This document shows, in pieces, positions 33,228 through 43,573 of a stretch of 64,000 bases of DNA. The stretch covers positions 2,719,001-2,783,000 of the forward strand of contig NZ_QWDD01000001.1 of assembly GCF_003722355.1 (NCBI RefSeq), given 5' to 3'. The DNA is from Methylocystis hirsuta (GTDB taxonomy: Bacteria > Pseudomonadota > Alphaproteobacteria > Rhizobiales > Beijerinckiaceae). Each line of letters opens with the position of its first letter. The first letter of the stretch is position 1. A program made the translations under genes and the position numbers. The notes beneath the pieces were generated by a model. The model was not told where the DNA came from. It made no database searches and worked only from the letters and a program-made list of their open reading frames with translations.

Positions 33228-34667
33228 TCACGGCGCGACCAGGGCATTGCGCAGATCCGTCGCCCTCGCGTCGCGCTTGGAAAGCGGCGCAACGCCGAAG
33301 CGGAGCTCGATCGTGCGCAGCACGGACAGGGTGTCGTAGACAGTCTTGTCGACGAAGCCCTTCTTGGCGAAGGGAGAAATGATCAGCGTCGGCACGCGGA
33401 TGCCGGGACCGTAGTCGTCTCTTTTGGGCGGCGCGACGTGATCCCAGAACCCGCCATTTTCATCGGCCGTGACGATGATCAGCATGTCGACCCAATTGGG
33501 GCTCTTGCGCAGCCTTGCGACGACGTCCGCGACATGAGCGTCGCCGGCGGCGAGATCCGAATAATCCGGATGCCCGTTGAACACGCCGAGAGGCTTGCAA
33601 AAGCTCACCTGCGGCAGATCGCCTTCGTCAATGGCTTTGTAAAATTCGTCGGCGTCCTTGAGGTTGTTGCGGCCGTTCTGGCCCGGCGCGTAATTGGCGA
33701 AATAGGCGAACGGCTGATGGTGAGTCTGAAAAAAGTCGGGCTTGCCTTCGCCATAAGGCTTGAGGCGCCCCTCGACGACGTCGCGCCAGCCGCCCGCGTA
33801 CCAGGCCCAAGTGACGCCCTTCTCGGTCATGCGATCGCCGATCGTCGGCAAATGCGATGGCGGAAGCCGCTCCTGCGCTTCCGTCCTGTCATGCTTCGAC
33901 ACCGGATTTCCCGGCTGAAGCGTTCCAATCGCCTCCAGTTTCTTGGTCAGCGGGGCGAGGTTCATATGGCGCGGCGGGCCGTCGAGCACGCTTCGCGGCG
34001 AGTCGGGCTGTCGAGCGCGAATGACGAGCGCCGCCCCCTTGGCGTCCTTGATGGCGTCGAGCTTCGGATCGAATTTCTTTTTCGTTGCTTCAACCGGATT
34101 GTCGAAGACCGGCGCGCAGCCGCAGATAAGGAAGAAATGGTTGAGCATCGAGCCGCCGAACGCCGCGTGAAAGAAATGGTCGGCGAGGGTGAATTCCTTC
34201 GCCAGGGCCCATTGTTTCAGCTGTGAACCGTCGTAATAGCCCATGACCAGCGCGCCGGCGTTCGACGCCTCGACGAAACGGTCCATTTTTCCGCCGTCGA
34301 TCTGCTCCTGCTCGAGATAGAAATCATGCACCGGGTCCATGGTGTGACCATCGATGTCGACATAAGGCTCGAGGCGAAACGGCGCGTTGGGCAAGCGTCG
34401 CGGGAAGCGATCGTCCCATCGGGGACGCGGCAGCGCGGGCAGCGGGCTTCCGTCAAAATCCACTTGTGGCGGGTGCTGAGCCGAGTTGACGCCCTCGGCG
34501 TCCGGAAACAGCCCGAACACATGGTCGAAGCTGCGATTTTCAGTGAAAATGACAACGACATGGCCAATTCGCGCGAAAGGATTTTCTTGGTCCTGCGCCT
34601 CGGCGCATGCGCAGGTCGCGGCCGCACACATGGCCAGCGAGATTACGAATCGTCCGACAGCTTTCAT
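33228..34667 (-). CDS. AcpA/phospholipase C-family phosphoesterase
   Basis: A 479-residue exported enzyme of the PF04185 phosphoesterase family. The start at 34667 gives a signal peptide MKAVGRFVISLAMCAAATCA cleaved near CAEA. Signatures: HVVVIFTENRSFDHVFG with the metal Glu-Asn and the nucleophile region, TLADHFFHAAFGGSMLNHFF, and VTADENGGFWDHVAPP. Family members are acid phosphatases or phospholipases C; the substrate here is unknown. It is 116 bp downstream of the diheme peroxidase gene on the same strand, likely cotranscribed with it, and lies just upstream of the pmoC promoter region. Confidence 0.85.
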   Translation of the reverse strand: MKAVGRFVISLAMCAAATCACAEAQDQENPFARIGHVVVIFTENRSFDHVFGLFPDAEGVNSAQHPPQVDFDGSPLPALPRPRWDDRFPRRLPNAPFRLEPYVDIDGHTMDPVHDFYLEQEQIDGGKMDRFVEASNAGALVMGYYDGSQLKQWALAKEFTLADHFFHAAFGGSMLNHFFLICGCAPVFDNPVEATKKKFDPKLDAIKDAKGAALVIRARQPDSPRSVLDGPPRHMNLAPLTKKLEAIGTLQPGNPVSKHDRTEAQERLPPSHLPTIGDRMTEKGVTWAWYAGGWRDVVEGRLKPYGEGKPDFFQTHHQPFAYFANYAPGQNGRNNLKDADEFYKAIDEGDLPQVSFCKPLGVFNGHPDYSDLAAGDAHVADVVARLRKSPNWVDMLIIVTADENGGFWDHVAPPKRDDYGPGIRVPTLIISPFAKKGFVDKTVYDTLSVLRTIELRFGVAPLSKRDARATDLRNALVAP

Positions 34668-34783
34668 TGACAGGCGTCCTCCGCGCGGCGCGACGCCGCG
34701 CGGAGAATTTAATTGGCGACGCCGCACGATTTGTGACGGCGCCGTCTTCCTTTCATTTTAGCGGGCGTTTCGCTCAAGTCCGC

Positions 34784-35821
34784 TTACTGGGGGAGCGGCG
34801 TGTCCTTGGTGCGTGGCGGCAGCACCGGATAAACCGCCTTAGGCTGGTCGCCATTCAGAGTCCCGAGGAATGCGACGATCGCCTTGATGTCCGGATCGGA
34901 GAAATTTTCGCCGAGCTGGTCTTTGGCCATCAGGTCGACCGCCTCTTCCAGAGTCCAGACGGTGCCGGTGTGGAAGTAAGGCGCGCGCAACGCCACATTG
35001 CGCAGGGGCGCAGAGCGGAAGACGAAATCGTCCGCTGCGTCATTGGTGACCTTGGAGCGGCCCTTATCAGCGACGGGCATGATCTCGACGCCCGGCTTTT
35101 GAGCGACCCCGAAGGGGAAATAGCCGTTGCCGCCGATGTTGACGCCGCCGTGACAAGCGGCGCAGCCCTTGTCGATGAAAAGACGCAGGCCTTTTTTCTC
35201 AACGTCATTGAGCGCGTTGACGTCGCCCTTCAGGAACTTGTCGAATGGCGCGTTCGGCGTCGTCAGCGTCGCCTCGAAAGCCTCGATGGCCTTCGCCATG
35301 TTGTCGAAACTGACCGGCTTGGGGTCCGCCGGAAAGGCGGCCTTGAACTCCGCAACATAGGCCGGCATGCTATTCAGCATCTTTTCGACCTGCGCCGGCG
35401 TGTTGTTCATTTCGACGTCGGCCTGGACCGGGCCTTTCGCTTGCGCCTTAAGGTCGACGGCGCGCCCATCCCAAAATTGCGCGACGTTGAATACGGCGTT
35501 GAGCACGGTCGGCGCGCGGCGCGGTCCCTTCGCCCAGCCGTGGCCGATCGACGTCGGGCCGGCGTCAACGCCGCCGGTTCCGAGATTGTGACAGCTGTTG
35601 CAGCTGATGATCTGACTCTTGGAAAGCCGCGGATCGAAAAAGAGCTTGCTGCCGAGGTCGATCTTGGCCGGCGTGATCTCGTTATTCTTGACGACGCTCG
35701 CGACGCTCGCGGCGTCGATCGGCTTGAAGACCGCGTTGGCGTCGGCGCGCAAATCGCCCGCGACGGCCATGGCCGGCGCCAGCAGAGTCGCTGCGAGCGC
35801 GGCGAACCTGGTCAAATACAT
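34784..35821 (-). CDS. Diheme cytochrome c peroxidase (CcpA/MauG superfamily)
   Basis: A 345-residue periplasmic protein with a signal peptide ending AVAG and two c-haem motifs, CNSCH at 74-78 and CAACH at 220-224. The segment RRAPTVLNAVFNVAQFWDGR is typical of bacterial cytochrome c peroxidases, and RSAPLRNVALRAPYFHTG closes the second haem domain. It would reduce H2O2 with electrons from a small cytochrome. Divergent from the second diheme gene. Confidence 0.9.
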   Translation of the reverse strand: MYLTRFAALAATLLAPAMAVAGDLRADANAVFKPIDAASVASVVKNNEITPAKIDLGSKLFFDPRLSKSQIISCNSCHNLGTGGVDAGPTSIGHGWAKGPRRAPTVLNAVFNVAQFWDGRAVDLKAQAKGPVQADVEMNNTPAQVEKMLNSMPAYVAEFKAAFPADPKPVSFDNMAKAIEAFEATLTTPNAPFDKFLKGDVNALNDVEKKGLRLFIDKGCAACHGGVNIGGNGYFPFGVAQKPGVEIMPVADKGRSKVTNDAADDFVFRSAPLRNVALRAPYFHTGTVWTLEEAVDLMAKDQLGENFSDPDIKAIVAFLGTLNGDQPKAVYPVLPPRTKDTPLPQ

Positions 35822-36213: not shown

Positions 36214-37362
36214 ATGGCGCGCGTTCCTAAGTTTCGCAAATCCGTTGAGGCGGCGCTTGTCGCGCTTCCGCTTGCGGCGCTGCTCGCCGCCGGCGGCTGG
36301 GCGATGGCTGAGCCGCTCGGCCTGCCAAAAGTCCCCATCCCGGCGGACAATCCGCAGTCGCCGGAAAAGATCGCGCTCGGCGACAAGCTGTTCCATGACG
36401 CGCGCTTCTCGATCGACGGCACGGTGAGCTGCTCGACCTGTCACAACGACAAGAAGGCGTTCACCGACAGCCCGCTGCGCGTCTCGGAGGGCCATCACAA
36501 GCTGACCGGCACCCGCAACGCTCCGACGGTCATCAACGCGGCCTATTACACCTCGCAGTTCTGGGACGGGCGCTCGATCTCGCTGGAGGATCAGTCGCAG
36601 CACCCGATGGTCAACCCCGTCGAAATGGGGCTGCCCGATCACGAGCCGGTGCTCAAGATCGTTCGTGAAGATCCCGCCTATGTCGAGGGCTTCAAGAAGG
36701 CGTTCGGCAAGAGCGGTCGCGATGTGACGATGGATGACGTCAAGAAGGCGATCGCGAGCTTCGAGCGCACGGTCATCTCGGGCGATTCGCCCTTCGACAA
36801 ATGGTATTTCGGCGGCGACCGCAACGCCATCAGCGATCAGGCCAAGCGCGGCTTCGACCTTTATGTCGGCCAGGGCCGCTGCGTCTCCTGCCATGTCATC
36901 GAACAGACGCAGGCGCTCTTCACCGACAATCGGTTCCACAATATCGGCGTCGGCATCAACCGCATTCAAAACGACGTCCCGCGCCTCGCCGCCGAATTCC
37001 TCAAGGCCAAAGCGGCGGGCGCCTCCGTCGACAAGACGGTGCTCGCCGATCCGAAAGTCTCCGACCTCGGCCGCTTCGCCGTGACGAACGCTTTCGACGA
37101 GATCGGCGCTTTCAAAACCACGACGCTGCGCAATATCGCGATGACCGCGCCTTACATGCACGACGGCTCGCTCAAAACGCTCAAAGATGTCGTCAAGCAT
37201 TACAACGAGGGCGGCAAAAGCCCCGGCGATCCGTGGCCGGTCAACCCTTATCTCTCAGGCGGCATCCGGCCGTTGGATCTGAAGGATCAGCAGATCGACG
37301 ATCTCGTCGCCTTCCTGGAGACGCTGACGAGCCCCGCTTATGTGACGGCGCAGACAAAATAA
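36214..37362 (+). CDS. MauG-like diheme cytochrome c protein
   Basis: A 382-residue exported protein with an N-terminal signal/anchor ending WAMA. The two haem motifs are CSTCH at 73-77 and CVSCH at 223-227, with FWDGRSISLEDQSQHPMVNP and FHNIGVGINRI. The latter pattern is closer to the MauG/MbnH branch than the neighbour encoded at 34784. That branch includes peroxide-using enzymes that modify partner proteins, but classical peroxidase activity cannot be excluded. It is 72 bp upstream of the metallophosphoesterase gene and is probably the head of that operon. Confidence 0.88.
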   Translation: MARVPKFRKSVEAALVALPLAALLAAGGWAMAEPLGLPKVPIPADNPQSPEKIALGDKLFHDARFSIDGTVSCSTCHNDKKAFTDSPLRVSEGHHKLTGTRNAPTVINAAYYTSQFWDGRSISLEDQSQHPMVNPVEMGLPDHEPVLKIVREDPAYVEGFKKAFGKSGRDVTMDDVKKAIASFERTVISGDSPFDKWYFGGDRNAISDQAKRGFDLYVGQGRCVSCHVIEQTQALFTDNRFHNIGVGINRIQNDVPRLAAEFLKAKAAGASVDKTVLADPKVSDLGRFAVTNAFDEIGAFKTTTLRNIAMTAPYMHDGSLKTLKDVVKHYNEGGKSPGDPWPVNPYLSGGIRPLDLKDQQIDDLVAFLETLTSPAYVTAQTK

Positions 37363-37434: not shown

Positions 37435-38508
37435 ATGACCAGACTCATCACCCGACGCAGCGTGATCGCCGCCGGCGCCGCCGCCGGAACGCTCACGACC
37501 CTGCCGATCTCCATGGTGCGCCTCGCCTTCGGCGGAACGCGCGAGGATTTCAGCTTCACCTATATTTCCGATTCGCACATTCAGCAGATCAAGGGCGCAA
37601 GTTTCGTGCGCAACTGGGACATGGGCCTGAAGCGCGCCGTCGCCGAAGCCAATCTCATCCTCCCTGAAGCAGATTTCGTCATGTTCGGCGGCGATCTCGC
37701 GCAGCTCGGCAAGAAGGAGGAGCTCGACCACGGCGGCGAGATGCTTTCGCATGTGAAAGGCAAGCTCCACTGCGTCATGGGCGAGCATGACTATTATCTC
37801 GACCTCGGCGAATATTGGTCGAAGCTCTATGGTCCGCAGTGGTACAGCTTCGACCATAAGGGCGTACATTTCGTCGTGTTGAATTCGATTCTCACGACGG
37901 ATGAATGGACGTTTCATCGGTGGCCGTCGGCCGAGCAGCGCATGCTCGAGATGGCCGGCCTGGACAATCCGAACGGCTCGCCGTTCATGGTCGGCGAAAA
38001 GCAGCGCGCCTGGCTCAAGGATGATCTCGACAAAGTGTCCAAGGACACGCCGCTCATCGTCTTCTCGCATTCGCCGCTGCAGAAGATCTACAAGGGCTGG
38101 AATTTCTGGACCGACGACGCCGAGCAGGTGCAGGAGCTGTTGCAGCCGTTCAAGACCGTCAATGTGATCTACGGCCATGTGCACCAGATCCAGTACAATC
38201 AGATCGGCAACATCGCCTTCAATGCGGTGATGGCGACGGCCTGGCCCTGGCCATATCCCGACACCTATGCGCAAGCCGGCGCGCATGTGCCTGTGCTGAC
38301 GGTTCCGATGAACCGCGCTGACCCCTTCTTCGAACGCGACGCCACAGGCTGGCAGATGATCGACGTCAACTCCGGCCGCGTCACCGCGCGCTATCAGCTG
38401 TGGGACAACCAGGAGCGCGTCGTCGGCTACGATCCGAGGCTCGGGAAGCCCGTCGACAAGCGATATCAAGAGGCGATCGTCCGCAAGGCGCCGCAGCTGC
38501 ATTACTAG
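37435..38508 (+). CDS. Tat-exported calcineurin-like metallophosphoesterase
   Basis: A 357-residue protein. The N-terminus MTRLITRRSVIAAGAAAGTL is a twin-arginine signal. All dimetal motifs are visible: ISDSHI, GGDLAQLG, GEHDYY (a variant of GNHE), FSHSPL and YGHVHQIQ. It acts in the periplasm on an unknown phosphoester. GGGAGGATAGAA lies upstream of the ATG. Its placement between a diheme protein and a cytochrome c is unusual for a simple phosphate-scavenging enzyme. Confidence 0.9.
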   Translation: MTRLITRRSVIAAGAAAGTLTTLPISMVRLAFGGTREDFSFTYISDSHIQQIKGASFVRNWDMGLKRAVAEANLILPEADFVMFGGDLAQLGKKEELDHGGEMLSHVKGKLHCVMGEHDYYLDLGEYWSKLYGPQWYSFDHKGVHFVVLNSILTTDEWTFHRWPSAEQRMLEMAGLDNPNGSPFMVGEKQRAWLKDDLDKVSKDTPLIVFSHSPLQKIYKGWNFWTDDAEQVQELLQPFKTVNVIYGHVHQIQYNQIGNIAFNAVMATAWPWPYPDTYAQAGAHVPVLTVPMNRADPFFERDATGWQMIDVNSGRVTARYQLWDNQERVVGYDPRLGKPVDKRYQEAIVRKAPQLHY

Positions 38509-38618: not shown

Positions 38619-38637
38619 TGGGTTGAGGAGAATGACG

Positions 38638-39036
38638 ATGCGCCGCTACACGATTGCGCTTGTTTTAAGCGCTGTGCTGCTTTCCCCGGCAACGCTCGCC
38701 GACGAATTTTCGACGACGGACGTCGACCGCTGGCAGGGCGAATTTGATTCCGTCGCCAAGAAAGGCCGCGAGCTTTGGACCAGCGGAGCCGTCGGCACGA
38801 ACGGCGTGGCCTGCGCGCAGTGCCATCCCAACGCCGCCAACACCCATCCCGAGACTTACCCGAAATTCCAAAAGCAGCTCGGCAAGGTCGCGCAGCTCTT
38901 TGAAATGGTGAACTGGTGCATCAAAAATCCGCTGCAGGGGGCCGCGCTTCCGGCCGACGATCCGAAGATGACGGCGCTCGTCGCCTATATTCATAAGGAG
39001 CGCAAGGGAGTCGCGATCGACGCCGGCAAGCACTGA
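38638..39036 (+). CDS. Small monoheme cytochrome c
   Basis: A 132-residue exported cytochrome. The ATG at 38638 has GAGGAG seven bases upstream; TTG at 38623 and ATG at 38632 are alternatives. Signal peptide MRRYTIALVLSAVLLSPATLA, haem motif CAQCH at 59-63, a probable axial Met in DDPKMTALVAYIHKE. It is a plausible electron donor to one of the diheme proteins next door. Separated from the metallophosphoesterase gene by a repeat element. Confidence 0.85.
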   Translation: MRRYTIALVLSAVLLSPATLADEFSTTDVDRWQGEFDSVAKKGRELWTSGAVGTNGVACAQCHPNAANTHPETYPKFQKQLGKVAQLFEMVNWCIKNPLQGAALPADDPKMTALVAYIHKERKGVAIDAGKH

Positions 39037-39991
39037 CCCAAATTCGCGGCCGGCTGGAACCATCCGGCCGGCCGGACGTTTGCATACGGTTTATTTCAAA
39101 GCGTACGCGCCTTTAGCGCGACCGCCAGCAAGAGATTTTGAAGATGGTTCAGGAACTCATCGATCGTATTTACGAATGCTCCTTCGCGCCGGACATGTGG
39201 CCCGACGTGCTCGACGAACTTTCACATCTTGCCGAGGCGCAGGGCGGCGTGCTCTTCGCGGCGCGCGAAAAAGTCTCCCGCTGGACGGCGTCTCCGGCGA
39301 TCTGCGAGCATGTCGAAAACTTCATGCGGGGCGACTGGCTCAGCAACTGCACGCGCGGCGGCAGGCTGTTCAGTCGCCGCCATCCGGGATTCCTCACCGA
39401 CGACGACGTCTATACGGCGGAGGAGCTTGAGCGCGACACCAACTATAGCGACTTCCTGCGGCCACGCGGGCTGGGGTTCAGCGCGGCGACGGCGATCTCG
39501 CTGCCCACCGGCGACACCGGCATCATCTGCCTCGAACGCGCGCATAACCGCGGACCGGTCGAGCCGTCCGTCATCCGCAAGCTCGACGAATTGCGGCCGC
39601 ACCTTGCGCGCGCCGCCTTCCTCGCCACCCGTCTGCAACTCGAGCGCGCCCGCGTCGCCGGCGAAACCTTCGCGCTCATCGGCCTTCCGGCGCTCGTGCT
39701 CGACGAAGACGGGCGCGTCATCTCCGCCAACGACCCGAGCAATGCGCTGAACAAATATGTCCGCTGGCGCGCCCATGACCGCGTGTCGCTCATCGACGCC
39801 TCCGCCGACGGGCTGCTGCGTCAGGCGATGGACACGCTCGACGACGATCTCGTCGGCGCGCCGAAATCCTTCGCCGCCCGGGCTGGCGAAGACGAAAGCC
39901 CAATGATCGCCAATCTGGTGCCCATCCGCGGCGCGGCGCGCGACATTTTCGTGCGTTGCGCGGCCGTTCTGGTGATGACCCCGGTGGGCTC

Positions 39992-39999
39992 GCCGCAGG
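39992..39999. repeat. IS66 target-site duplication, left
   Basis: GCCGCAGG, repeated exactly at 42845-42852. Eight bases is the normal duplication size for IS66. Confidence 0.95.
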
Positions 40000-40042
40000 G
40001 TAGCCATCCGGCGTAGACCGCGGGCTTCGCAGTTTCCTGAGT

Positions 40043-40275
40043 TCAACGCTTCAAAAGCGTTGGATCATCTTTGTAGAGTTTGATCAGCTCGACCAAGGTT
40101 TCGATCCCGAAGGCGGTGAACGCCATAACGCCGTCGTCCCCGATCCCGTAGACCATATGAGGCCGTCTTCAGGCTCCATCTCGGCGGCGACGTCAAACAG
40201 CCAATCCTCGTTTTCGCCGAGTTGTTTGGCGACGAGGCTGATCGTCCTGACGTGGGCGATTTTGTTGACGTGCAT
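40043..40275 (-). pseudogene. Frameshifted IS66 passenger ORF
   Basis: The frame from 40275 reads MHVNKIAHVRTISLVAKQLG then EPEDGLIW. The continuation VYGIGDDGVMAFTAFGIETL and KLYKDDPTLLKR stop lies in the next frame. One G appears to be missing after TGG, at about 40152-40155, so the protein is broken there. Similar small proteins accompany IS66 elements of alphaproteobacteria; their function is unknown. Confidence 0.7.
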
Positions 40276-40277
40276 GA

Positions 40278-41930
40278 TCAGGCCGCACGAGCGGAGATTG
40301 TCGAACCTTGTGGCGCCCAGTTCCACGGCAGCAGTTCATCAATCCGGTGGGCTGGATGGGCGGCGATACGTGACAAAACGTCTGCGAGCCAAGCCTGCGG
40401 ATCGACGCCATTCATTTTGGCTGTGACAATGAGACTGTACATGGCCGCAGCGCGCTGCCCTCCGCGATCTGACCCGCAGAACAGCCATGATTTTCTTCCC
40501 AGCGCGATGCCTCTTAGCCCTCGTTCCGCAGCATTGTTGGACAAGCACACGCGTCCGTCGTCAAGGAATAGCGTGAACGCGGCCCAACGCTTGAGCATGT
40601 AATTGATAGCCTTGACCAGGTCGTGCCCGCGCGAGAGCCTGGCCGCCTGCTCGCGCAAATAGACCCGCAGATCATCGACCAGCGGCCCGCTCAGCGTGCG
40701 GCGGACCGCCAGGCGTTCTTCGGCGCTCTTTCCATTGATGGACCGCTCGATCTCGAACAGGGCGTCGATGCGGCGAACGACCTCGATCGCGATCGGCGAC
40801 AAAGGGATTTCCTTTTTGCCAGCAGCCTTGCGGCGCGCGTTTTCGTCCAGATCAGCCATGGCGAAGAAGGGGCGCCGCGCGTGAACCCAGCACGCCGCCT
40901 CTTTGACCGGGCCAGGCTTGCGGTCCGCCAGATAGAGCCTGTTGTATCCGTCATAGGCGTCGGCTTGCAGGATGCCGGCATATCCCGCCAGATGCGCCTG
41001 CGGATGCTCGCCCCGGCGATCGCGCGAGTAATAGAACATCGCCGCCGGCGGCCCGGCGCCGCCGAACGGCTTGTCGTCTCGAACATAAATCCAGCACCGC
41101 CCGGTATCGGTTTTGCCTTCGGCCAGAACCGGCACGGTCGTATCATCGCCATGCAGGCGTTCGGCCGCCATGACGTGAGATTCCACAAGGCGAAGGAGCG
41201 GTTCGAGCGTTGTGCACACCGAGCCCACAGCGTCGGCCATGGTCGACAGCGCGATCGGCACGCCTTCCAGGGCATAACGCTCGGCCTGACGGTTCAAAGG
41301 CTGGTGCTGGCCGAACTTCTCGAACACGATCATCGCCAGCAGGCTCGCCCCCGCCCATCCCCGCGCAATCACATGGAATGGCGCCGGCGCCTGGCTGATC
41401 TTCTCGCAATCCCGGCAGGTGAACTTCTCCCGAACCGTCTCGATGACCTTCCACTGACGGGGCGTCGTTTCCAATGTGCGCGTCACATCCTCGCCGAGCT
41501 TGCGCAGGCGAGCGCTCCCGCAGCATTCGCATGCCGTCGGCGGGTCGATCACCACGCGCTCGCGCGGAAGGTGGTCGGGGAACGTATTGCGCTCCGGGCG
41601 CTTGCGCGTAAATCCAGCGACCGTCGTCGTCCTGGCGACGGCCCTTTCGGCGGCAAGCTCGTCTTCCGTCGCGCTGGTTTCCAGCTCTTCGAAGGTGAGC
41701 GCCAGTTGATCGATCAGCCGCGCCGAGCGCTCCGACCGCTGCCCATAGACCTGACGCTCCAGTTTCGCAATCCGAAGCTTCTGCTGCGCGATCAGCGCCA
41801 TGTCTTCCGACGCTTTCGCGCGGGCGACCGCCAGTTCCGCCGCAACGTCCAGGCTCTTGGTCTGCGCAACGGCCAGCGCCGCTTTCAGGGCGGCGTTTTC
41901 TCGGGCAAGAACGGCGCGAGCGGCATCCAT
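40278..41930 (-). CDS. tnpC: IS66 transposase TnpC
   Basis: A 550-residue transposase. An N-terminal leucine-zipper-like helix ([40 protein letters not shown]) precedes a zinc-finger-like part with [15 protein letters not shown] and CRDCEKISQ. The DDE core has [33 protein letters not shown] and the C-terminal segment [20 protein letters not shown], as in IS66. The full length suggests an active enzyme. Confidence 0.95.
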
Positions 41931-42014
41931 GAGACGAAGTGAATCATAAATCGCGTGATTTGAGGCGCCCTAAAATGCACGCGACCCCAATTTTTTCGAC
42001 GCAATCCGCGCACG

Positions 42015-42362
42015 CTAACCGGCGCTCTTGGGCCGCCATGTCAGTTGCGGATTCCGCCAGTCTATCCCTTCGAGCATATACGCCATCTGCGCCGCCGAGA
42101 TCGACACTGCGCCCCCCGACGCCGACGGCCATATGAACTTTCCGCGGTCCAATCGTTTGGCGTAAAGCGATAGCCCGATTCCATCGTGCCAAAGGATCTT
42201 GGCGAGATCACCGCGGCGACCTCGGAAAATATAAAGATCGCCCGCATGAGGATCGCGCTTCAGAGTCTCCTGAACCTGAAGCGCCAGACCCTGCATGCCG
42301 CGCCGCATGTCGGTATGCCCAGTCGCAATCCAGACCCTGACGCCGTTCGGAATCGGAATCAT
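42015..42362 (-). CDS. tnpB: IS66 accessory protein TnpB
   Basis: A 115-residue protein, MIPIPNGVRVWIATGHTDMR then GLALQVQETLKRDPHAGDLY and IFRGRRGDLAKILWHDGIGL, the classic IS66 Orf2. It overlaps tnpA by 4 bases (ATGA). Required with TnpA for IS66 transposition, though the mechanism is not fully known. Confidence 0.95.
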   Translation of the reverse strand: MIPIPNGVRVWIATGHTDMRRGMQGLALQVQETLKRDPHAGDLYIFRGRRGDLAKILWHDGIGLSLYAKRLDRGKFIWPSASGGAVSISAAQMAYMLEGIDWRNPQLTWRPKSAG

Positions 42363-42739
42363 CGCCGCGACAGCGCCTTCAATACGCGCGACAACGCCGC
42401 CGTCTCGACATCAGCCCAGACGAGGATCCGGTCGCCTTCCGAAAGAACGATTTCCATCTGGCCGCGCGATCCCGAAGTGGAACCTTCTGCGGCGGTGTCC
42501 GGCGCGATCGTCACCGGTAGTATTGGCGTGATAGTCTTCCGCGCGGCAGGGTCGAGGTTGAACTCTCGGCGCCAGGTGAAAAGCTGATTGGCGTTAAGCG
42601 CGTGCCGCCGCGCCACTTCGGCAATCGATGCGCCTTCTTCGCGGCTCTCATCGACGATCCGACGCTTGTCGTCCCGGTTCCAGGACCGACGTTTGCGCCT
42701 GATCGGCGCCAGTTCGCCGTCTTTGCCGACCGATATCAA
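42359..42739 (-). CDS. tnpA: IS66 accessory protein TnpA
   Basis: A 126-residue protein with a helix-turn-helix of the IS3/IS66 orfA kind: RRSWNRDDKRRIVDESREEG and ASIAEVARRHALNANQLFTW. It is the first gene of the IS66 operon; its promoter must lie in the 105 bp between 42739 and the element end at 42844. Confidence 0.93.
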   Translation of the reverse strand: MISVGKDGELAPIRRKRRSWNRDDKRRIVDESREEGASIAEVARRHALNANQLFTWRREFNLDPAARKTITPILPVTIAPDTAAEGSTSGSRGQMEIVLSEGDRILVWADVETAALSRVLKALSRR

Positions 42740-42844
42740 TGATAGTGTCCATGTGGCTCAAGTGGACACGATCATCGAGCCACTCTTCAGACAGCTATCT
42801 CCAAAATCGAGTTCAAAGCCAGGCGGCCGCCGGCGAAGGGATAC

Positions 42845-42852
42845 GCCGCAGG
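42845..42852. repeat. IS66 target-site duplication, right
   Basis: GCCGCAGG, identical to 39992-39999, directly outside the right end of the element. Confidence 0.95.
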
Positions 42853-43119
42853 CGCCGGCGATCGAATTGGTTCAGTCCCTCTATGACCTCACGCCGGCCG
42901 AGGCGCGCGTCGCGCGTGGACTTGTCACGGGCAAAACGCTCGAGGAAATCGCCACCGATCAGTCCGTGTCGCGCAACACCGTGCGCACCCATCTGCGCGG
43001 CGTGATGGAAAAGACCGGATGCAACCGCCAGGCGGAAGTGGTCGCGCTCCTGGGTGGACTCGCCCCGCTCAACCCGCCAAGGGGCGAATAAGCGTATACA
43101 TTTAATTTCAAGCAATTGA

Positions 43120-43160
43120 GGGGCCGGCCTCATCCGTTTGGATGATGCCAGCCCCTTTCT
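43120..43160 (+). terminator. Terminator after the interrupted regulator gene
   Basis: An imperfect stem, GGGGCCGGC...CATCC with GGATGATGCCAGCCCC, and then TTTCTTT. It starts 29 bp after the regulator stop. Confidence 0.7.
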
Positions 43161-43573
43161 TTCGTCTTAACGTTTTCTCGAACGTCGGGGGGGCGGACGA
43201 AATTGCCGCGGACGCTTCAGTAACTCGGGGTTCGATACTACGCGCTCAATTTTCAGCCTGCCTTTTGAGCTCGACTCTTTTAGCAGCCCTTTTGAGCTTA
43301 AATTTGGAGGGTCTTCGCGAGGCCCTCTGTTTGCCCACGTCAGCTTAAGGGCGCAGGTTCGGCGAATACTTGAGCCACGCTTCAAAAAAACCGCCGTCAT
43401 CATCAATTCGAATGACGCGGAGAAGCGATTTTGGTCGTAGTTTTTTTATGAACAGTGAGAGGCGCAAGGAGTTAGACGAGCGCAAATGCTCTCAATGTTC
43501 GCCTATCTGGCGCTTACTTCTCAGTGAGACTTTTACCTGGATGTTTCCTCCTCGACTTTTCTCCCATCTCTTA

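What the first reader, a model, noticed from the sequence alone, without database searches (positions are those of the whole stretch)
39144..43091. Regulator of the haem/phosphatase cluster knocked out by IS66
The two halves of a LuxR-type regulator flank a complete IS66 with an exact 8-bp duplication (GCCGCAGG at 39992-39999 and 42845-42852). Deleting 40000-42852 restores a single 364-residue frame, so the insertion is recent. The regulator is encoded directly after the diheme/metallophosphoesterase/cytochrome genes, so this strain may have lost control of them, or reveals what the regulator does.
Basis: seen in the sequence. Interest (0 to 1): 0.72.

Follow-up and report, generated by a model that had tools for sequence, protein, structure and literature searches.

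The report
IS66 insertion breaks a LuxR regulator
In this methane-eating bacterium a jumping DNA element has recently cut a well-conserved switch gene in two just before its DNA-binding part; related strains carry the whole gene, and at least one other strain seems to have lost it in a different way, so this is an ordinary kind of event with one mildly unusual twist.

Summary
A complete 2845-bp IS66-family element (40000-42844; TnpA, TnpB, TnpC) lies inside a 364-codon LuxR/GerE-type regulator gene, flanked by an exact 8-bp duplication. Five full-length copies (three identical, two with one base change) sit in the genome, each with its own 8-bp duplication: a real, recent transposition. Contig sizes equal those published for Methylocystis hirsuta CSC1 (PacBio). 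Fifteen genomes of the genus hold the gene uninterrupted at 90-98% identity in the same place, under purifying selection (pN/pS 0.11). The insertion cuts off the DNA-binding domain: null allele is the best reading.

The gene follows the pmoCAB/phosphatase/diheme/phosphoesterase/cytochrome cluster, but three Methylocystis genomes and four of a sister genus have the cluster without it, M. parvus has them about 104 kb apart, and one Methylocapsa has the gene without the cluster. Control of the cluster is unproven; a shared upstream word is at chance level.

Repeated loss is suggestive, not significant after allowing for ascertainment.

The parts
39144..39999 (+). 5' part of the LuxR/GerE-type regulator gene (285 codons plus one base); now reads 5 residues into the IS and stops at 40016 (290 aa from the ATG at 39144)
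   Evidence: no Pfam family matched in this half
39992..39999 (.). left copy of the 8-bp target duplication GCCGCAGG
40000..42844 (-). complete IS66-family insertion sequence, 2845 bp; five full-length copies in the genome
40000..40023 (.). left end of the element (GTAGCCATCC...), 15 of 24 bases match the inverted right end
40278..41930 (-). TnpC, IS66 DDE transposase, 550 aa
42015..42362 (-). TnpB (IS66 Orf2-like), 115 aa
42359..42739 (-). TnpA accessory protein (ISRel24-like), 126 aa from a TTG
42821..42844 (.). right end of the element
42845..42852 (.). right copy of the 8-bp target duplication
42853..43091 (+). 3' part of the regulator gene with the whole GerE helix-turn-helix; open in frame back to a TTG at 42588 inside the IS
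43117..43164 (+). intrinsic-terminator-like hairpin after the regulator gene, -28.9 kcal/mol (z -5.9), then T-rich; the simple terminator scan did not list it
38623..39036 (+). SoxA/TsdA-type cytochrome gene directly upstream (107-bp gap)
37435..38508 (+). calcineurin-like phosphoesterase gene of the neighbouring cluster
36214..37362 (+). MauG/MbnH-like diheme enzyme gene
34784..35821 (-). second MauG-like diheme enzyme gene, divergent
33228..34727 (-). acid phosphatase/phosphoesterase gene

Best explanation
An active IS66-family element (five full-length copies in this genome) transposed into codon 286 of a conserved LuxR/GerE-type regulator gene and duplicated 8 bp. It separates the N-terminal (probably ligand-sensing) 285 residues from the C-terminal helix-turn-helix (residues 297-350). 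The truncated 290-aa product lacks that DNA-binding domain and the HTH half has lost its promoter and start, so the allele is most likely null. Shown: insertion, duplication, copy number, intact orthologues, purifying selection, loss of the HTH from the frame. Inferred: null phenotype, ligand-sensing role. The regulator's targets are unknown; local control of the cytochrome/diheme operon is plausible from position only.
For: Exact duplication and restored 364-codon frame; five full-length copies, three identical and two with one base change, five different duplications; IS66 TnpA/B/C domains; 15 uninterrupted orthologues of 90-98% identity between the same cytochrome and guaB genes; pN/pS 0.113 pooled over the pairs of those 15 relatives and one window-private residue, at position 311, so the loss is recent; the GerE domain lies wholly in the 3' half and at residues 297-350 of an intact relative; no promoter-like site of the scanned type in the IS on the + strand; an independent frameshift in G022 suggests that the gene can be lost.
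Against: No expression or phenotype data. The HTH half is open in frame about 85 codons back into the IS (167-aa ORF 42588-43091), so a hybrid HTH protein is not excluded. The promoter scan is a simple sigma-70 consensus and alphaproteobacterial promoters can be missed. Only one assembly of this strain was seen, so the insertion might be a variant of that culture.
Confidence: 0.9

Rival explanations
1. Repeated loss: this regulator is being lost in parallel in the hirsuta/SC2/suflitae group, perhaps because it is useless or costly in laboratory culture (domestication).
For: Three different lesions in three strains that lie near one another: IS in codon 286 (window), 2-bp insertion frameshift at about codon 278 (G022), 9-bp in-frame deletion of residues 304-306 in the HTH (NLS-7; GerE score 26.6 bits against 33.0-36.1 in the five intact relatives scanned). 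They lie within 29 codons; chance of such clustering 0.018, post hoc. Of 117 complete copies of ten neighbouring genes none was broken (one tblastn piece over 96-100% of the gene, no stop), against 2 of 18 regulator genes (p 0.017).
Against: The window's lesion was the reason for looking; without it 1 of 17 against none of 107 gives p 0.14. Cultured strains 3 of 9 (G019, unnamed, counted as cultured) against metagenome bins 0 of 8 gives p 0.21, and bins tend to lose IS-broken genes at contig ends. The NLS-7 deletion keeps the frame and its GerE score stays above the cut-off of 23.5. Five named cultured strains are intact (M. silviterrae FS, M. rosea SV97, H62, L43, B8). On the tree the fewest changes of state are 2, not 3; that the events are three rests on the lesions being different.
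Confidence: 0.25
2. The regulator controls the pmo-adjacent phosphatase/diheme/phosphoesterase/cytochrome cluster, and this strain has lost that control.
For: Cytochrome gene adjacent and co-oriented, 106-188 bp upstream in the 16 genomes measured; every one of 19 genomes of the genus with the orthologue also has the cluster marker.
Against: Cluster without the orthologue in G007, G023, G034 and four genomes of a sister genus; about 104 kb apart in G009; gene without cluster in Methylocapsa S129. The longest word shared by the two upstream regions (CGGTTTATT) is matched in length in 107 of 300 shuffles, and in the divergent region it is present in 5 of the 12 relatives aligned.
Confidence: 0.35
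3. The insertion makes a new HTH-only (or IS-HTH hybrid) protein that acts without its sensor half: gain of function rather than loss.
For: 167-aa open frame 42588-43091 runs from the IS into the complete GerE domain.
Against: The IS genes are on the other strand, no promoter-like site of the scanned type lies on + in the element, the start is a TTG in antisense IS sequence. Whether any relative keeps an HTH-only form was not searched for as such.
Confidence: 0.05
4. Assembly artefact joining unrelated IS copies.
For: Five near-identical copies exist, which can confuse short-read assembly.
Against: PacBio ~20-kb library assembled with HGAP 4.0, different perfect 8-bp duplications at all five copies, flanks colinear with the 15 relatives.
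Confidence: 0.02

Closest known systems
IS66-family insertion sequences (ISRel24-like TnpA); best matches seen in plasmids of Methylovirgula sp. HY1 (89.6% over 78% of the element) and Methylocystis sp. MJC1 (84.2% over 64%)
   Same: TnpA/TnpB/TnpC order, DDE transposase, 8-bp duplication, ends beginning GTA
   Different: No record of the plasmid collection covers 80% of it in one place (near mode, records of the window's own genome may be left out); ends begin GTA rather than the GTAA that I recall for the family. ISfinder was not available, so no IS name is given
LuxR/GerE-type single-protein regulators ('helix-turn-helix / CsgD-family transcriptional regulator'), a family with 1813 proteins at E<=1e-20 among the 8000 candidates scored
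   Same: C-terminal GerE HTH, same full length, same N-terminal signature (Y10 and W19 invariant in 49 aligned members)
   Different: This copy is split before the HTH; sequence searches of solved structures firmly match the HTH region only
Intact orthologue in Methylocystis silviterrae FS (L037)
   Same: 98% identity, same neighbours on both sides
   Different: Uninterrupted

Membership tests
IS66 family | IS66 DDE transposase (TnpC) with zinc-finger, leucine-zipper and C-terminal elements | tested here: met
   PF03050, PF13817, PF13007, PF13005 and NF033517 above their cut-offs
IS66 family | TnpA and TnpB accessory genes upstream | tested here: met
   NF047595, PF05717, NF033819 above their cut-offs
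IS66 family | 8-bp target duplication | tested here: met
   five of five full-length copies
IS66 family | imperfect terminal inverted repeats beginning GTA(A) | tested here: met
   GTA at both ends, 15 of 24 matches, 20 of 40; the usual GTAA is recalled and is not exact here
LuxR/GerE-type regulator | C-terminal GerE HTH | tested here: met
   PF00196 above cut-off in the 3' half and in 48 of 49 relatives at E<=0.01
LuxR/GerE-type regulator | N-terminal sensing domain | tested here: inconclusive
   weak MLTR_LBD matches in 19 of 49 relatives at E<=0.01; structure prediction failed and was then not available
Quorum-sensing LuxR (autoinducer-binding) | autoinducer-binding domain | tested here: not met
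   no autoinducer-binding family among the 12 Pfam families matched by the 49 relatives at E<=0.01

The most novel reading that the evidence does not exclude
A strongly conserved LuxR-type regulator beside the particulate methane monooxygenase operon is inactivated in parallel, each time at or just before its HTH, in cultured Methylocystis strains, because losing its DNA binding (while keeping its sensor half) is advantageous in laboratory or bioreactor growth.
Probability: 0.1. Interest if true: 0.55.

Novelty: new member of a known kind. Interest (0 to 1): 0.3.

Why it matters
M. hirsuta CSC1 is a high-yield bioplastic (PHB) producer and Methylocystis sp. SC2 a reference strain for methane kinetics. 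If both lack a regulator that their relatives keep under purifying selection, results on pmo-linked electron-transfer or phosphatase genes from these strains may not represent the genus, and the natural mutants offer a ready comparison for finding what the regulator does.

Tried and rejected
Shared operator: the 9-mer CGGTTTATT occurs only twice in the window, in the divergent diheme promoter region (36031) and upstream of the regulator (39087), and TRCGGTTTATTNC only at those two places in the whole genome. Rejected: the pattern was derived from the two sites; 107 of 300 dinucleotide shuffles of the two regions share a 9-mer and 184 of 300 reach 11 of 13. Of 20 relatives searched with the longer pattern, 12 have a match and only G004 has both sites. 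In its favour: the plain 9-mer is also present in the divergent region of G004, G005, G014, G006 and G019, but not of G022, G036, G012, G010, G009, G007 or G023.

Sequence profiles against solved structures match the HTH, apart from marginal matches of other regions.

Literature: no paper in the held library holds Methylocystis, IS66 and LuxR together. Searches showed nothing on this gene in their listings. The CSC1 genome paper PMC6562138 (part 1 of 2 of the text read; terms searched in the whole main text) has no occurrence of LuxR, IS66 or transposase. The SC2 genome paper PMC3794950 (start of abstract in a listing, passages) has no occurrence of LuxR, frameshift or pseudogene. PMC9601215 and PMC9239053: passages only, no information on this cluster.

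Rows dropped: abc47 was left out of the lesion count because its query starts upstream of the likely start (one match, G036, holds a stop). Gene copies cut by a contig end were not counted. In the tally typed for two per-gene numbers (PLC33, cyc45) are off by one in opposite directions; the total of 117 is right. In one search NLS-7 (G014) counts as intact although it lacks three residues; small in-frame gaps of the neighbouring genes were not counted either. One search scored at most 13 candidates per genome, and G204 and G205 were searched for the phosphoesterase but not for the regulator.

A PHROGs scan of part of L005 used an arbitrary stretch and says nothing.

Full report
What is there. 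The window belongs to G000 (4,213,043 bp in 4 contigs; contig 1 3,776,027 bp, contig 3 260,028 bp). These figures equal those published for Methylocystis hirsuta CSC1 (PMC6562138), so I take the strain to be CSC1. At 39144-43091 a gene is split by a 2845-bp element at 40000-42844 with an exact 8-bp duplication. The element carries TnpA, TnpB and TnpC of the IS66 family.

Is it a genuine transposition. Five full-length copies lie in the genome: three identical to one another and two with a single base change each. Each has its own different 8-bp duplication. A sixth match is a 69-bp end piece beside withheld sequence (L006). The published assembly is from PacBio reads of ~20-kb fragments. An assembly join is therefore very unlikely. 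The other copies hit another IS66 transposase gene (L004), an NTPase-like open frame of 741 codons stop to stop (L005), and two places where the interrupted sequence is unclear (L001, L002).

What was hit. Without the insert the frame has 364 codons. Residues 297-350 of an intact relative are a GerE helix-turn-helix (PF00196), and the window's 3' half holds it whole. The first 280 residues match nothing firmly; 19 of 49 relatives match the MLTR ligand-binding domain weakly. The family is large: 1813 proteins at E <= 1e-20 among the 8000 candidates scored. Of 61 genomes searched, 15 hold the gene uninterrupted at 90-98% identity (14 with 364 codons, one with 361), two more at 60-62% (G009, G010), and two hold it broken (G000, G022). 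Pooled pN/pS over the pairs of the 15 relatives is 0.113, and the window copy has a single private residue, so the gene is constrained and the loss recent.

What the break does. The 5' half now ends five residues into the element (290 aa) and has no HTH. The 3' half keeps the HTH but no native start; it is open back to a TTG in the element (42588-43091), with no promoter-like site of the scanned type in front. I infer a null allele. A strong hairpin with a T-rich tail follows the gene.

Does it regulate its neighbours. The order pmoCAB - phosphatase - diheme - diheme - phosphoesterase - cytochrome - regulator - guaB is kept in close relatives as far as contigs allow. Of 39 genomes of the genus, 23 have the phosphoesterase (one, G002, only at 49%). 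All 19 genomes with the regulator (>=60%) are among them, and the cytochrome gene is adjacent in 18 (in G018 the phosphoesterase itself is on another contig). But G007, G023 and G034 have the cluster and no such regulator (best other matches 38, 26 and 39%), and in G009 the two lie about 104 kb apart. In a sample of 149 genomes of the family, four of a sister genus (g66, probably Methylosinus, unnamed) have the cluster without it in the stretches fetched and are not among the 5 of 149 with a regulator match at E <= 1e-90; G182 of another genus has a diverged cluster (47-52%) without it. That searches drew the same 149 genomes is my inference from the handles. Linkage inside the genus is real but may be inherited position. 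The search for a shared operator failed.

Independent lesions. G022 (one contig of 3,773,444 bp; by size Methylocystis sp. SC2, whose chromosome is given as 3.77 Mb in the abstract listed; the identification is my inference, and the plasmids of SC2 are not held) has a 2-bp insertion about 23 bp upstream of the IS site that puts the HTH out of frame. The inserted bases are not in a homopolymer run. M. suflitae NLS-7 (G014) lacks three residues (304-306) at the start of the HTH; its GerE score is 26.6 bits against 33.0-36.1 in the five intact relatives scanned, and the match begins at profile position 13 instead of 2 or 3, but it stays above the cut-off. On a tree of four neighbouring genes the three strains and M. 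silviterrae (intact) lie near one another, with almost no support for the fork that joins SC2 (51/11); the fewest changes of state are 2, so that the losses are three rests on their being different lesions. A further database protein (P0014, 279 aa) looks frameshifted in its N-terminal part; it may be a sequencing error. Statistics are suggestive only: clustering within 29 codons p 0.018 (post hoc); 2 of 18 against none of 117 neighbouring gene copies p 0.017, but p 0.14 without the window; cultured strains against metagenome bins p 0.21.

Verdict. A well-seen, correctly described IS66 knockout of a conserved LuxR-type regulator: ordinary in kind, useful as a natural mutant. The claim that the haem/phosphatase cluster has lost its control is a hypothesis, not a finding.

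Noticed in passing
L023 / G022:C1:3641241-3642334: Independent frameshift (2-bp insertion) in the same regulator gene in the genome that by size is Methylocystis sp. SC2.
   Followed up: partly
L012/L040 (G014, M. suflitae NLS-7): 9-bp in-frame deletion at the start of the HTH of the orthologue.
   Followed up: partly
L004 (G000:C1:2197075-2199919): A copy of the same IS66 element is nested inside the transposase gene of a different IS66 element.
   Followed up: no
L005 (G000:C1:948606-951450): A copy of the element interrupts a 741-codon (stop to stop) NTPase-like open frame.
   Followed up: no
L006 (G000:C1:2589932-2590000): 69-bp end piece of the element directly beside withheld (N) sequence.
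   Followed up: no
33228-34727: The phosphatase gene is 86-88% identical to several close relatives (G004, G005, G006, G019, G028) but 94-96% to others (G022, G016), while the diheme, phosphoesterase and cytochrome genes of these genomes are 94-99%: possible recombination or allele exchange.
   Followed up: no
L077 (G007:C2:57820-58884): A second, 75% identical phosphoesterase copy on another contig of G007, without the other cluster genes in the 18 kb fetched.
   Followed up: no
P0014: Database protein of 279 aa whose first ~24 residues look like an out-of-frame reading of the orthologue.
   Followed up: no
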